From NCBI GenBank assembly GCA_021823555.1, contig JAKANW010000067.1:1-6993 (forward strand): a DNA stretch of 6,993 bases. The letters are read 5' to 3'. The stretch comes from Chloroflexota bacterium. Lineage in GTDB: Bacteria; Chloroflexota; Anaerolineae; Anaerolineales; Villigracilaceae. The notes beneath the pieces were generated by a model that was not told where the DNA came from, did no database searches, and saw nothing but the letters and a program-made list of their open reading frames with translations. Positions 357 to 5,180 of this stretch are shown here, in pieces. Position numbers and translations under genes: made by a program. Every line of letters begins with the position of its first letter. Positions within the stretch are counted from its first letter, which is position 1.

Positions 357-1442
357 ATGTCCAAAAAAATCCGCTTGCTATACATGGAAGGCGTATCCCC
401 GCTCCGCTCGCAGACTGTCTATCATGCGGTCGGGTATGCCATGAAACAAGACACGCCGAATACCATCATCCTGGTCTCGCCGAACGGCCCATATGTGTCC
501 ATTGGATATCACCAGGACATACAAAAGGAAGTCGACCTGGACTACTGCGCCCAACGCAATCTGCCCGTCTATCGCCGCGAGGTCGGTGGTGGAGCAGTGT
601 ATCTCGACAATGGTCAACTCTTCACGCAATGGATTTTCCGCAAGGAAGATTTGCCCGCGTCGCTGGAAGAACGTTTCAAACTTTATATTGACCCGCTTGT
701 GCAAACATATCAAGCTTTGGGAATCAATGCCAATCATCGTCCCATCAACGATGTGCACGTTAATGGCAAAAAGATTGGTGGCACAGGCGCGGCGCAGATG
801 GGAATCGCGGAAGTGGTCGTCGGCAGTTTGATGTACACGTTCGACAAGAAAACCATGTCGCAGGTGTTGAAGGTCCCCTCCGAGAAAATGCGTGACAAGA
901 TTTTCGAGTCACTCGAGCAATACATGACGACGATGACCGAACAACTCGGCTCCACGCCCGACCGCGCGATGGTCAAGGATTTGTATATGAAGAAAGTCTC
1001 TGAAGCCTTGGGCGCGGAAGTGTATGAAGGCGAATGGACAGCCGAAGAGGAAATCGTGGCGCAGGAGATTGATGCACGTTTCACGTCCGACGAGTGGCTG
1101 TATCAAAAAGGACGCTTGCAACAGCAAGGCGTGAAAATCCATCAGGATGTACACATCGTCGAAGCGGCGTTCAAGGCACAGGGTGGTCTGATCCGAGTCA
1201 TCGCCCGTCTGCGCGAAGGCCGCATTGACGACGTCTCCATTTCGGGCGACTTTACTTTGCTTCCGTCGTTTGCATTGGGGGCGCTCGAACAGTCCATTCG
1301 AGGCATGAGCGCAACGCCCGAAACGTTGAAGACACGGATCGAAGAAGCATACTATCGCCTGAATATTCAGTCGCCCGGCGTTACTCCCGTTGACTTTACC
1401 ACCGCGATCATGAACGCGGTCGCGCCGTCGAGTCCCGCATGA
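357..1442 (+). CDS. lplA: Lipoate-protein ligase (LplA/LplA-like)
   Basis: The 361-residue protein belongs to the lipoate/biotin ligase fold family. It would activate lipoate with ATP to lipoyl-AMP and transfer it to a lysine of a carrier protein in the cytoplasm. Visible signatures are RREVGGGAVYLD at 73-84 (family RRxxGGGxVxHD, here with Leu in place of the usual His) and NDVHVNGKKIGG at 131-142, with Lys139 in the position of the catalytic lysine. The 'HGTLL' segment usual after it is replaced by VVVGSLMYTFD (153-163). Residues 240-340 form the accessory C-terminal domain, and total length is close to two-domain LplA (about 340). An RBS GAGGTG supports the ATG at 357. The GcvH-like carrier upstream is the likely substrate. 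A convergent purine operon follows. Octanoyl-transferases of the LipM type share this fold, but the C-terminal domain argues for a ligase. Confidence 0.85.
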   Translation: MSKKIRLLYMEGVSPLRSQTVYHAVGYAMKQDTPNTIILVSPNGPYVSIGYHQDIQKEVDLDYCAQRNLPVYRREVGGGAVYLDNGQLFTQWIFRKEDLPASLEERFKLYIDPLVQTYQALGINANHRPINDVHVNGKKIGGTGAAQMGIAEVVVGSLMYTFDKKTMSQVLKVPSEKMRDKIFESLEQYMTTMTEQLGSTPDRAMVKDLYMKKVSEALGAEVYEGEWTAEEEIVAQEIDARFTSDEWLYQKGRLQQQGVKIHQDVHIVEAAFKAQGGLIRVIARLREGRIDDVSISGDFTLLPSFALGALEQSIRGMSATPETLKTRIEEAYYRLNIQSPGVTPVDFTTAIMNAVAPSSPA

Positions 1443-1710
1443 ACCATGGCCGCGGTTTTCTGTGATAATCAAATAGCGTAGCCTCCAGCTGCAACCAAAA
1501 GATCGCCAATCATGCTTTACTGCCGGGGCATAATAGGTTTAGCTGTTGCGCTAAAAACCGACAGAGCAATCGAGGCGAAAGTCAAACTTCTTTGGTGTGA
1601 AATTGCACTTTGAAAACCCCTGGGTTGGACAGATAAGATGCAAAGTCATCCTGGTTGGCTTGTTTCGCATCCAGGTAAAAGTTGATGGTCACAACTGCTC
1701 CATGATCAGA
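1443..1710. other. Convergent intergenic region, no confident gene
   Basis: This lies between the lplA stop and the restored end of purB, where the two transcription units meet. A bulged stem-loop, GGTTTAGC 1536-1543 with GCTAAAAACC 1550-1559, might help end transcription, but it has no clear T-run on either strand. On the minus strand, codons directly after the second purB TAG (1711-1713) stay open to TGA 1582-1584. That gives 42 codons reading like strand-helix-strand (VTINFYLDA, QDDFASYLSN, GVFKVQFHTKEV). A GTG at 1690-1692 would give 36 residues, but I see no RBS and recognise no family. Confidence 0.4.
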
Positions 1711-1866
1711 CTATATAACGGCGATCAGACGATCAACCAGTTGCATGGCCAGACCTATATACGATTGCGGTGATAACGAAGCCAAGCGGATTCGCACTTC
1801 TTTACTGACATCAATCGCTTCCAGCCAGGACCTGTAATCTGCTTCCGTTAAAACGCGTCCACGCGT
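1711..1866 (-). pseudogene. purB: Detached C-terminal end of adenylosuccinate lyase
   Basis: These 51 codons plus a TAG (1711-1713) lie in the same frame as purB, directly after its in-frame TAG (1867-1869). They read TRGRVLTEADYRSWLEAI followed by segments such as VRIRLASLSPQSYIG and LAMQLVDRL. From memory of E. coli PurB, its end has 'KELTRGKRV', 'LPEEEKARLKAMTPANYIGRA' and 'MVDEL', and the match is position for position. With the stop codon read as an amino acid, the full protein would be 453 residues, close to E. coli PurB at 456. The segment is therefore the conserved helical third domain of the enzyme, cut off by one nonsense codon. It would be made only by readthrough, or if the stop is a sequencing error or strain-specific mutation. 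Confidence 0.85.
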
Positions 1867-3072
1867 CTAACGTTTGAGCGACTCGTACGCGTCACCCTGG
1901 CCCGCCGCGCGCAAGATCGTCTGCGCGCCCTCGCTGATGACCTCCCAGTGTGCATCAAGATCGGCTTTGAGCTTCTCTTCGTTCGCGGCAATGCGACTTA
2001 GGCCGCGCGTGAGATTAATCCACGCTATCAGTGTGTGACCCAGTGCGGTCCCAAATGTTCGTCGGACAGTTGAATCAGATAAGTCGCGTTGCAAGCGCGA
2101 AACCGTCAGCTTTTGGGCGTAATGGTTGAATAATGAATTGGCAATGCCAAGATTTCCCTCTGCATTTTCAAAGTCGATCGGGTTGACTTTTTGCGGCATG
2201 GTCGAGGAACCCACCTCCCCCTCCACGACCGCCTGCTTGAGATAACCATCGCTGATGTAACGCCAGATGTCTTGCGAGAAGTCAATCAAGATGGAATTGG
2301 TCAGACGCAAGGCATCGAAGTAGCAAACCCAATTATCGTATGGCAGGATTTGAGTCGTAAGCAGATTTGGTTCAAGATCATATCCTGCGATAAATGCTTT
2401 GCTGAAAGACACCCAATCCACTTGCGGGGCGGCAGCCTGCAAAGCGTTGAGATTGCCGACTGCGCCTGTCAGTTTGGCTTCGAAGCGGTGTGCAGCGATT
2501 TTATCACGCGTCTTTTTAAGTCTTGAAAGATAAACGGCAACTTCCTTGCCTAATGTAGTGGGGACGGCGAACTGTCCATGGGTGCGCGCCAGCATGGGCA
2601 GGGCGCGGGTACGGATGGCGAGATCGTACAGAGAGCTAAGCAGCGCGTCCAACGCGGGAAGCAGGATTGTATCGCGCGCCTCGTGCAAGGAAATCGCCTG
2701 CCCGATGCTATTCACGTCTTCGGAAGTCAGGCCGAAGTGGATCCAGGACAACAAGTCATTGAGTGATGTGTCGTGCAATTTCTCTTGCAAAAAGTATTCA
2801 ATAGCTTTTACGTCGTGACACGTCTCACGTTCGTGAGTGCGAATGGACTCGGCATCAGCGGAGGAAAAGGTAGATTTAATCGATTCGATCTGAATGGTTT
2901 CGGAATCGGTCAAAGGGCGGAAGAGGCCCGTTTTGGAAAGAGCAGACAAATAGTCCAGCTCGACGCGGAGGCGATCGCGCAGAAACGCGAATTCAGAGAA
3001 GAGTCCACTCAAAGGTGCAGTCAGTTCCGCATAGCGGCCATCCAATGGCGAGAGGGCGTTCAGTTCATTCAT
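1867..3072 (-). CDS. purB: Adenylosuccinate lyase, truncated by in-frame amber stop
   Basis: PurB removes fumarate from SAICAR and from adenylosuccinate, so it serves two purine steps. The frame encodes 401 residues. Fumarase/ASL-superfamily signatures are present: ERETCHDVKAIEYFL (81-95), TSEDVNS (116-122), ARTHGQFAVPTTLGKE (162-177, His165 the likely catalytic base region) and the signature loop GSSTMPQKVNP (288-298) with the catalytic serine. The start is ATG 3070-3072 (MNELNALSPLDGRY), matching the family N-terminus; a longer upstream frame to 3183 lies inside the preceding gene and is rejected. The start overlaps the last codons of the IMP cyclohydrolase gene by 8 bases (ATGAATGA), so translation is probably coupled. 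TAG at 1867-1869 stands where E. coli PurB has Leu (KELTRG versus KR*TRG), one base change from TTG. The remaining 51 codons follow intact. Activity of the truncated form is doubtful. Confidence 0.93.
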   Translation of the reverse strand: MNELNALSPLDGRYAELTAPLSGLFSEFAFLRDRLRVELDYLSALSKTGLFRPLTDSETIQIESIKSTFSSADAESIRTHERETCHDVKAIEYFLQEKLHDTSLNDLLSWIHFGLTSEDVNSIGQAISLHEARDTILLPALDALLSSLYDLAIRTRALPMLARTHGQFAVPTTLGKEVAVYLSRLKKTRDKIAAHRFEAKLTGAVGNLNALQAAAPQVDWVSFSKAFIAGYDLEPNLLTTQILPYDNWVCYFDALRLTNSILIDFSQDIWRYISDGYLKQAVVEGEVGSSTMPQKVNPIDFENAEGNLGIANSLFNHYAQKLTVSRLQRDLSDSTVRRTFGTALGHTLIAWINLTRGLSRIAANEEKLKADLDAHWEVISEGAQTILRAAGQGDAYESLKR

Positions 3073-3640
3073 GGTTTGCCAAATATTCCGAGATGGTTGC
3101 ATCGTAGCGCGCGGTGACAGTGAAGCCTTTGACGGCGAGAGCTTTACGTTGTTCAGAACGGATGCCACCGTTCTGAAGCGCATTTAGTACGGACCGGTAA
3201 TCGGTGGGGTCGCAGACGAGGGTTACACGCTCGTGGTTTTTCGCCGCGGCGCGAATGAGCGTGACACCGCCGATATCTATGTTTTCGATGACATCGGCGT
3301 AAGAGGCATTCGGCTTGGCAATGGTCGCTTCAAAAGGATAGAGGTTGACAGTCACGAGGTCAATGTAATTCCAGCCAAGATCGAGCAGTTGTTGATGATC
3401 TTCCTGCGTTGGGCGCGCCAGCAAACCGCCGTGAATCGCAGGATGTAGAGTTTTGACGCGCCCACTGAGGATTTCGGGCGATTTGGTGTAATCTGCCACT
3501 TCGGTGACGGGCAGATCGTTCTCGCGCAGTAGTTTGGCTGTACCACCTGAGGCAAGCAGAGTCCAGCCGAGCGCGGCAAGGCCTTGGGCAAAATCAACGA
3601 CGCCAGTTTTATTGTGAACGGAGAGGATGGCGATAGGCAT
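3065..3640 (-). CDS. purH: Stand-alone IMP cyclohydrolase (PurH N-terminal domain only)
   Basis: This 191-residue protein is the MGS-like IMP cyclohydrolase half of PurH, which closes FAICAR to IMP, the last step of IMP synthesis. Motifs: SVHNKTG (7-13), ASGGTAK (30-36), GRVKTLHPAIHGGLLAR (60-76), NLYPFE (99-104) and NIDIGGVTLIRAAAKN (120-135). Ordinary bacterial PurH is about 510-530 residues and carries an AICAR transformylase domain after this point. Here the protein ends cleanly with YDATISEYLANHE at the natural domain border, with TGA at 3065-3067. The stop overlaps the purB start, so no transformylase half can follow in this operon. Separate cyclohydrolase and transformylase genes are known in some archaea (I recall the names PurJ and PurV), so a split pathway is the likely reading rather than decay. 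ATG 3638-3640 is preceded by a good RBS. Confidence 0.88.
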   Translation of the reverse strand: MPIAILSVHNKTGVVDFAQGLAALGWTLLASGGTAKLLRENDLPVTEVADYTKSPEILSGRVKTLHPAIHGGLLARPTQEDHQQLLDLGWNYIDLVTVNLYPFEATIAKPNASYADVIENIDIGGVTLIRAAAKNHERVTLVCDPTDYRSVLNALQNGGIRSEQRKALAVKGFTVTARYDATISEYLANHE

Positions 3641-3967: not shown

Positions 3968-4537
3968 CTAGCGGTTGCCACCGTTCCCCTTGCCGTTCCC
4001 GCCGCCCGCCCACAGGGGCTGGCCCGTTGAACTGCGGAAGGAGTAGACCTGTCCGCGACCATCGGGAGTATCGAGCGTGACGGTAATCGCGGAGTACAGT
4101 CCCTGGTCACCGGGAAAGCCGTTGACTGTAACGCCCTCGCCGACCTGCGGCGCGAAGCCGATGGATTGGCTGTAGCGCGAGCTACCCAGTTGGACATACA
4201 GCGCGGTTCCATCATCGAGGGTGAGGCTCAAGCCTGTCAGGTCAAAGCTGACGACGGTGCCGTGTACGGTGGTCGCGCCGCTGATGTCGGCTTGCGGTAC
4301 GCCATTGTTAGTGGATGGGTTGCCGCTGTTGCCATTGCCCTGTCCGCCCGGACTCCCATTGCCGCTCACAGTGCCTTGCCCTGTGGAGCCATTGCCGTTG
4401 ACGGTAACCACCTGTGGTTGGACGGCGGGTACGCTTACGTCAGGCGCGGCCATCGCGGAGTAGACGCTCGCGCCGATGGCGACAACGATCACGGCGGCCA
4501 GAATTCCAGCCAGGAGAATTTTTAGTGTTTTCATCAT
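3968..4537 (-). CDS. Secreted OB-like domain protein with Gly/Asn-rich linker
   Basis: The 189-residue protein begins MMKTLKILLAGILAAVIVVA: Lys residues, a hydrophobic core at about 6-26, and an AMA|AP site near 28-31 that suits signal peptidase, so export is likely. Residues 46-80 are a linker rich in Gly, Asn and Ser. Residues 90-157 (VHGTVVSFDL, LTLDDGTALYVQLG, GFAPQVGEGVTVNGF, SAITVTLD) read as a small beta-barrel of the kind annotated as OB-like or DUF5666-like. The tail has TGQPLWAGGG and ends NGKGNGGNR. I recall similar 'PLWAG' tails in Chloroflexota proteins of unknown function, so no function is assigned. The start is placed at ATG 4535-4537 because GAGG (4544-4547) lies 6 bases upstream. 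An ATG 12 bases earlier (4547-4549) lacks such a site. It is a single-gene unit with its own terminator. Confidence 0.7.
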   Translation of the reverse strand: MMKTLKILLAGILAAVIVVAIGASVYSAMAAPDVSVPAVQPQVVTVNGNGSTGQGTVSGNGSPGGQGNGNSGNPSTNNGVPQADISGATTVHGTVVSFDLTGLSLTLDDGTALYVQLGSSRYSQSIGFAPQVGEGVTVNGFPGDQGLYSAITVTLDTPDGRGQVYSFRSSTGQPLWAGGGNGKGNGGNR

Positions 4538-4572
4538 GATATGCCTCATTTCATTTTGGTTTCAAATTGGAT

Positions 4573-4593: not shown

Positions 4594-4757
4594 TTGCCCC
4601 CATGATAGGACTCGAATGTAAAGATGTCTTAAACATTGGGTCAAGACTATGCAAAATTTGTGACAATGCGTTCTTTATAAATTCTTCACGCAATCTTGTC
4701 GGGGTCTATAAGCTGGGCTGATAAAAATGGGTCACTGTAACTTTGATTGGAGTAACA

Positions 4758-5180
4758 ATGACCGACCCAACCCCTCAACCTTCCCTCTTTGAACGGATCC
4801 GCTCCCGCCTTGCGCCGAATGAGTTGCCCAGCGATGACCGCGGCCGTATGCGCATGGTGGTCGATAGTCTGATCCTGCACCTGCATCCCACCAAGGTGGC
4901 CGTGCCCACCATGAACTGGACCTACAGTTGGGGTCTGGGCGGACTTTCGGCTTTGCTGATGGTTCGCACACCTTCGATGTCTACGCCACTGACATGCTTG
5001 GAAATGCTGATGCTTTGCCCGCTTCCTATACTTGGACAGTGGACGGTCAACACCGGCTCGAGTAACGGCACCCTCCGTCTGGATGTGGGAACCGGGGGCA
5101 GTATTGTGGATGCGGCTCTCAATCCGCTGGCGGGTGGCATCACCGTGGGTGCGCCTACAATCCTTTGCGCTACTGCCTAG
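4758..5180 (+). CDS. Chimeric ORF: cytochrome b N-terminus joined to Ig-like repeat pieces, probable pseudogene
   Basis: GGAG (4749-4752) lies 5 bases before the ATG, so expression looks possible; a TTG at 4743 is less likely. Of 140 residues, 1-66 resemble the start of a Chloroflexi-type cytochrome b of a bc or alternative complex: a charged N-terminus, then SLILHLHPTKV (37-47) and NWTYSWGLGGLSALL (53-67), just where the first membrane helix begins. No haem-ligand helix follows. After about position 4952 the same frame reads nonsense (RTPSMSTPLTCLEML), while the neighbouring frame reads a surface-protein Ig-like repeat. From about 5043 this frame again makes sense as another such repeat: TVNTGSSNGTLRLDV, SIVDAALNPLAGG. 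The ORF ends at TAG 5178-5180. It looks like a rearrangement or deletion scar. A misassembly is the main alternative. A functional cytochrome b is excluded. Confidence 0.65.
   Translation: MTDPTPQPSLFERIRSRLAPNELPSDDRGRMRMVVDSLILHLHPTKVAVPTMNWTYSWGLGGLSALLMVRTPSMSTPLTCLEMLMLCPLPILGQWTVNTGSSNGTLRLDVGTGGSIVDAALNPLAGGITVGAPTILCATA
4952..5047 (+). pseudogene. Ig-like repeat fragment in a shifted frame
   Basis: Read from 4952, the DNA gives FADGSHTFDVYATDMLGNAD followed by ALPASYTWTVDG. This is the recurrent 'DGSHTF.V.ATD..GN.D..PASYTWTVD' unit of large bacterial surface proteins. It has no start codon of its own and reaches a stop at 5063-5065. It is +2 relative to the cytochrome b part, while the following repeat piece (from 5043) returns to the cytochrome b frame. 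The junctions sit in short similar stretches: TTTGCTGATGGT, and TATACTTGGACAGTG, where both repeat types encode Y-T-x-T-V. Loss of DNA between short homologies could explain both. Confidence 0.7.

What the first reader, a model, noticed from the sequence alone, without database searches (positions are those of the whole stretch)
1711..1869. purB interrupted by a single in-frame amber codon with the C-terminal domain intact behind it
The sequence shows AYESLKR-TAG-TRGRVLTE in one frame, and the next 51 codons match the family C-terminus up to a second TAG. The restored length (453) fits E. coli-type PurB. The amber replaces a conserved Leu, one base from TTG. TAG is used as an apparently genuine stop at 1711, 3968 and 5178, so genome-wide reassignment is unlikely. 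Options are a fresh nonsense mutation in an essential-type gene, stop-codon readthrough making two isoforms, a suppressor tRNA, a second purB elsewhere, or a base-call error.
Basis: partly seen in the sequence, partly recalled or inferred. Interest (0 to 1): 0.75.

Follow-up and report, generated by a model that had tools for sequence, protein, structure and literature searches.

The report
Amber-truncated purB in an Anaerolineales bacterium
A purine-synthesis gene in an uncultured Chloroflexota bacterium is cut short by one stop codon, most likely a recent inactivating mutation rather than a new way of reading the genetic code.

Summary
On the minus strand an E. coli-type adenylosuccinate lyase gene (purB, codon 1 at 3072) has an in-frame TAG at 1869-1867 (codon 402). 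51 further in-frame codons match the family C-terminus, up to a TAG at 1713-1711.

Leu holds for distant PurBs.

TAG looks like an ordinary stop here: it falls at the family C-terminal end in purB itself and in the 3968 gene. The tail behind the stop is conserved like any relative's, so the stop is young.

The body also carries two Arg-to-Cys changes, at positions that are Arg in 119/119 and 116/119 homologs. By summed severity 0 of 119 homologs match this at columns conserved >=95% or >=97%, but 2 do at >=90% and 4 at >=99%. Neighbouring purHN and lplA show no radical change. This leans towards a gene starting to decay. The cut removes three predicted helices of the lid domain.

Not settled: no whole genome or reads are held, so a second purB, a suppressor tRNA and base support are untested. 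I rate it an ordinary recent nonsense allele, of low interest.

The parts
1870..3072 (-). purB (adenylosuccinate lyase, E. coli type), codons 1-401 before the amber
   Evidence: NCBIfam PRK09285 524.9 bits over cut-off 446; Pfam Lyase_1 and the first 76 of 115 positions of ASL_C
1867..1869 (-). in-frame TAG at codon 402; the column is Gln in 113 of 119 listed homologs
1714..1866 (-). 51 in-frame codons behind the amber: C-terminal part of PurB (predicted helices 410-419, 424-431, 435-452; the last with low confidence)
   Evidence: PRK09285 positions 409-455, E 2.2e-6; 0 of 18 columns conserved at >=95% broken; AlphaFold2 model
1711..1713 (-). second TAG, at the family's C-terminal end
   Evidence: 108 of 119 listed homologs are 448-456 aa, range 444-477, median 453, against 453 here
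2818..2820 (-). codon 85, TGT (Cys) where 119 of 119 listed homologs have Arg; Arg or Asn in 110 of 110 loci compared (4 duplicates included)
2323..2325 (-). codon 250, TGC (Cys) where 116 of 119 listed homologs have Arg
3065..3640 (-). IMP cyclohydrolase part of PurH as a stand-alone 191-aa gene, its end overlapping the purB start; full length for its family (PurH is split in relatives too)
357..1442 (+). lipoate-protein ligase, full length for its family, convergent with purB; used as a control gene
3968..4549 (-). hypothetical protein ending in TAG at its relatives' C-terminal end; control for TAG as a stop

Best explanation
This is the purB gene of an uncultured Anaerolineales (Chloroflexota) bacterium carrying a recent nonsense mutation (a Gln codon changed to TAG, a transition). 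Translation ends at codon 401, before the last three predicted helices of domain 3, the lid that closes over the active site. The product is probably inactive or unstable. Two further radical changes at near-invariant arginines suggest that selection on this copy had already weakened, so it is an allele or copy in early decay. The cell presumably obtains AMP by purine salvage, from a neighbour, or from another copy not on this contig. Shown: the stop, the conserved tail, TAG as a normal stop in two genes, and the radical changes. Inferred: loss of activity, weakened selection, and how the cell copes.
For: Collinear match of both pieces to one PurB model. Gln at the column in 113 of 119 listed homologs; CAA or CAG in 34 of 36 loci at >=70% identity, duplicates included. 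The tail-versus-body identity contrast is at the 49th percentile of 119 homologs, and to the closest homolog P0002 the tail is 91% identical against 84% for the body, so the stop is young. TAG falls at the family end in purB itself and in the 3968 gene, where 8 of 9 matches in 6 loci could be read to their stops, from 2 residues before to 7 after the window's. Among relatives, 83 of 83 matches that cover codon 402 with E <= 3.2e-161 have no internal stop (82 genomes; hand count; weaker fragments left out of that count include two with stops, in G107 and G121). Summed BLOSUM62 penalty at conserved columns: 0 of 119 homologs reach the window's purB at >=95% and at >=97% conservation, 2 of 119 at >=90%, 4 of 119 at >=99%; purHN and lplA have 0 radical changes at each threshold. 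The predicted helices after 403 are lost; in human ADSL domain 3 is the lid, and Arg396His/Cys there cause disease (PMC6301967, passages read). No intact version of this exact protein is among the 120 listed hits; the next best is 84%.
Against: The number of unusual residues is not extreme: 7 private residues in the body against a mean of 3.1, reached by 13% of homologs. Two or more radical changes occur in 8, 4 and 2 of 119 homologs at >=90, >=95 and >=97% conservation, so the decay signal is modest and rests on two sites. Neighbour purHN also breaks 3 columns conserved at >=95%, as many as only 14 of 120 homologs do, though none radically. 0 of 18 conserved tail columns are broken, which would equally fit a tail that is still translated. 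purB is single-copy over the cut-off in 16 of 16 relatives searched, so its loss should be costly. There are no reads and no genome.
Confidence: 0.6

Rival explanations
1. Assembly or base-call artefact: the organism has an intact purB and the TAG is a wrong consensus base (or a mixture of strains).
For: The tail is fully conserved. The contig is short (longest listed 9319 bases) and has an abrupt junction at about 4962 that may itself be a misassembly. No reads are available.
Against: The identical 401-aa protein is listed on 2 contigs and no intact version of it is among the 120 hits shown, although the two may come from the same reads. An isolated error would not explain the two Arg-to-Cys changes in the same gene, with no radical change in the neighbours.
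Confidence: 0.2
2. The amber is read through or suppressed in part (near-cognate Gln tRNA, or a CUA suppressor tRNA of the cell or of a phage), so full-length PurB is still made, perhaps at a reduced level.
For: The tail is conserved; purB is normally single-copy in relatives; the inserted residue could be the family's own Gln. In one survey 375 of 715 phages predicted to use TAG=Gln carried a Sup-CTA tRNA (PMC11210395, passages).
Against: No structure beyond chance around the stop in three stretches (z 0.24, 0.94, -0.29). No tRNA in the window. No stop in the 83 relatives' matches covering that codon (hand count). The radical changes elsewhere suggest weakened selection.
Confidence: 0.13
3. 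A second, working adenylosuccinate lyase elsewhere in the genome makes this copy redundant and lets it decay. This is a variant of the best explanation, not exclusive of it.
For: One relative, G044, has two full copies at 58% identity each, and G121 has a purB C-terminal fragment with a TAA near an intact gene.
Against: 16 of 16 relatives searched with TIGR00928 have one gene over the cut-off (further matches below the cut-off are there in 14 of the 16). The window's own genome is not held.
Confidence: 0.2
4. TAG is reassigned to Gln throughout this genome.
For: The column is Gln in relatives.
Against: Two TAGs sit at families' C-terminal ends. purHN and lplA, full length for their families, contain no in-frame TAG and use CAA and CAG. 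PylS N-domain over cut-off in 0 of 152 family genomes. A screen of over 250,000 genomes describes UGA and arginine-codon changes in bacteria (PMC8629427, passages).
Confidence: 0.01

Closest known systems
PurB / adenylosuccinate lyase, E. coli type (PRK09285; structures 2PTS, 2PTQ, 3GZH)
   Same: Residues 2-449 of the read-through protein align with 4-455 of 2PTS; best fold matches of the model are E. coli adenylosuccinate lyase (TM about 0.75, rmsd 5.5).
   Different: Product ends at residue 401; Cys at positions 85 and 250; the other 119 listed homologs are 444 aa or longer.
Ordinary nonsense allele or young pseudogene
   Same: A single transition-class change to TAG, a conserved frame behind it, and radical changes at conserved sites.
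   Different: Only one disabling site so far; inactivity is not shown.
Phage TAG=Gln recoding (translation table 15; PMC11210395, passages)
   Same: TAG stands where Gln is expected.
   Different: A housekeeping gene on a contig with bacterial genes; one such TAG only, and other TAGs at gene ends.

Membership tests
PurB (adenylosuccinate lyase, PRK09285) | Match over the curated cut-off | tested here: met
   524.9 bits against cut-off 446, with codons 1-401 alone; TIGR00928 309.5 bits, below its cut-off 326.2
PurB (adenylosuccinate lyase, PRK09285) | Complete C-terminal (ASL_C) domain in the translated product | tested here: not met
   Only 76 of 115 ASL_C positions precede the stop
PurB (adenylosuccinate lyase, PRK09285) | Enzyme activity | not testable with these tools
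   needs assay or complementation
Nonsense allele / young pseudogene | Premature in-frame stop absent from relatives | tested here: met
   0 of 83 strong matches covering codon 402 have an internal stop (hand count)
Nonsense allele / young pseudogene | Relaxed constraint in the gene | tested here: inconclusive
   Severity sum reached by 0 of 119 homologs at >=95% and >=97% conserved columns, 2 at >=90%, 4 at >=99%; number of changes within range; tail pN/pS mean 0.38 against 0.29 among relatives (5-95% range 0.17-0.46), synonymous sites near saturation
TAG reassigned to sense | TAG not used as a stop | tested here: not met
   TAG at family C-terminal ends in purB and the 3968 gene
Pyrrolysine decoding of TAG | pylS in the clade | tested here: not met
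   0 of 152 family genomes over cut-off, 1 weak match below it; among 14 controls only Methanosarcina acetivorans rings; the window's own genome not testable
Programmed readthrough or suppressor | CUA suppressor tRNA in the genome | not testable with these tools
   no genome held; none in the window
Programmed readthrough or suppressor | Stop conserved in relatives | tested here: not met
   no stop at the column in 119 homologs, 110 loci or 83 genome matches

The most novel reading that the evidence does not exclude
A Chloroflexota bacterium keeps its only purB working through amber suppression by a Gln-inserting tRNA, its own or a phage's, so that an essential purine step depends on a suppressor. 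The conserved tail does not exclude this; the radical changes elsewhere and the lack of any stop in relatives speak against it.
Probability: 0.08. Interest if true: 0.6.

Novelty: new member of a known kind. Interest (0 to 1): 0.2.

Why it matters
As a probable loss-of-function allele of a normally single-copy biosynthetic gene, it hints at purine auxotrophy or leaky growth in part of an Anaerolineales population, and it warns that single in-frame stops in short contigs need a check of the whole gene before recoding is invoked. If suppression were real it would be a natural case of an essential bacterial gene depending on amber decoding.

Tried and rejected
Genome-wide TAG reassignment: rejected on the two TAGs at family C-terminal ends. 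Pyrrolysine: no pylS N-domain over cut-off in the family. RNA element for readthrough: no fold beyond chance, no Rfam match at gathering. Old pseudogene: rejected by tail conservation. Split PurH as a second broken gene: rejected, because relatives L002 and L004 have the same split and listed homologs are mostly 189-193 aa. lplA and purHN as further broken genes: no. NYN-like reading of the stretch behind the second TAG: Pfam E 0.03, below the cut-off; the DNA of that stretch matches 3 of 152 family genomes, best a 198-column 78% match, where the longest frame without a stop that touches it is 87 codons, so I take it as intergenic. A second purB and a suppressor tRNA in the own genome: could not be tested. 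A suppressor-tRNA scan of relatives was not tried, because they do not carry the stop. Literature: the listings of searches showed no report of this allele; only the held open-access library was searched, and passages of three papers were read.

Full report
Observation. The minus strand from 3072 reads as adenylosuccinate lyase for 401 codons, then TAG (1869-1867), then 51 codons, then TAG (1713-1711). Codons 1-401 hit PRK09285 at 524.9 bits (positions 4-406 of 456), and the 51-codon tail alone hits positions 409-455 (E 2.2e-6). So this is one gene with one interrupting amber.

Origin. The best listed protein apart from the window's own, P0002, is 84% identical. The window's own genome is not held, so the assignment rests on these relatives.

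What was replaced. In the 119 listed homologs other than the window's own, the column is Q 113, H 3, R 1, K 1, I 1. In 36 loci at >=70% identity the codon is CAA 20, CAG 14, AAA 2; four of these are the same gene fetched twice. TAG differs from CAG by one transition.

Is the stop old? Probably not. The tail-versus-body identity contrast sits at the 49th percentile of the 119 homologs; to P0002 the tail is 91% and the body 84% identical. 0 of 18 tail columns conserved at >=95% are broken. pN/pS of the tail against 33 relatives averages 0.38, against 0.29 among the relatives (5-95% range 0.17-0.46), with synonymous sites near saturation: slightly high, within range.

Is TAG a stop in this organism? 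The second TAG of purB lies at the family's end: 108 of 119 listed homologs are 448-456 aa, median 453, and 453 here. The TAG at 3968 follows GGNGKGNGGNR; of 9 matches in 6 relative loci, 8 could be read to their stops (TAA or TAG), which lie from 2 residues before to 7 after. The 5178 TAG ends a scrambled fragment and is no evidence. CAA and CAG are used 30 and 25 times in the stretches counted, which are purB, lplA, purHN and the 3968 gene; lplA and purHN are full length for their families and have no in-frame TAG. The PylS N-domain is over cut-off in 0 of 152 family genomes. Shulgina and Eddy's screen describes UGA and arginine-codon reassignments in bacteria (PMC8629427, passages read). 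Reassignment is therefore unlikely.

How rare is it? Of the purB matches listed from 152 family genomes, 83 (in 82 genomes) cover codon 402 with E <= 3.2e-161, by hand count, and none has an internal stop. Left out of that count: weaker fragments, many at contig ends, among them a split purB with two stops in G107 and a C-terminal fragment with a TAA in G121. 16 of 16 close genomes have exactly one TIGR00928 gene over the cut-off. The database lists the identical 401-aa protein on 2 contigs and no intact twin among the 120 hits shown.

Signs of decay elsewhere in the gene. Codon 85 is Cys where 119 of 119 homologs have Arg, and codon 250 is Cys where 116 of 119 have Arg. Position 85, next to an invariant His-Asp pair, is Arg or Asn in 110 of 110 loci, duplicates included. 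On a BLOSUM62 severity sum, 0 of 119 homologs reach the window's purB at columns conserved >=95% or >=97%, 2 at >=90% and 4 at >=99%; two or more radical changes occur in 8, 4 and 2 of 119 at >=90, >=95 and >=97%. purHN and lplA (120 homologs each) show no radical change, though purHN breaks 3 columns conserved at >=95%, as many as 14 of 120 homologs do. Against this, the number of private residues in purB's body (7) is reached by 13% of homologs. The signal is modest and rests on two sites.

Consequence. The AlphaFold2 model of the read-through protein (21 sequences aligned; mean pLDDT 73.6, the other four models 41.5-65.6; last nine residues under 50) matches E. coli adenylosuccinate lyase best. 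It puts codon 402 near the end of helix 393-403, so helices 410-419, 424-431 and 435-452 are lost. In human ADSL domain 3 is a lid whose closing is part of catalysis (PMC6301967, passages read); that the lost tail belongs to this domain is my inference from the alignment, not mapped residue by residue. Loss of activity is inferred, not shown. A PDB entry titled a truncated Salmonella adenylosuccinate lyase exists (5E3V), so the body may be able to fold without this part.

Verdict. A recent nonsense allele, probably inactivating, in a gene copy that may already be under weakened selection. Artefact (0.2) and partial suppression (0.13) remain open because reads, genome and proteome were not available.

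Noticed in passing
window 4743-5180: A cytochrome b-like N-terminus (aa 1-74; the strongest relatives' open frames are about 460-545 aa) breaks off at 4961-4963, at the same point against 8 loci from 5 relative genomes, and is followed by pieces resembling a repeat-rich long protein (aa 101-144) and further sequence in another frame: a rearrangement or an assembly junction.
   Followed up: partly
window 3968-4549: The 193-aa protein aligns with the two ends of relatives' mostly 355-445 aa open frames, so its middle may be deleted; some relatives (e.g. 214 and 237 aa) have a short form too.
   Followed up: partly
L002 3633-11718: In L002 PurH is split: AICAR transformylase (392 aa), PurN, IMP cyclohydrolase (190 aa), PurB, CarA, CarB in a row; L004 is similar with a 494-aa guaB-like gene before purB. 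Names other than PurB and IMP cyclohydrolase are my reading.
   Followed up: partly
window 1443-1713: The intergenic stretch between purB and lplA has a 198-column 78% match in G011 and short matches (31-38 bases) in G011, G089 and G103: perhaps a dispersed intergenic repeat.
   Followed up: partly
G121:C3:32162-32341: A purB C-terminal fragment with a TAA lies downstream of an intact purB: perhaps the remnant of a duplication.
   Followed up: no
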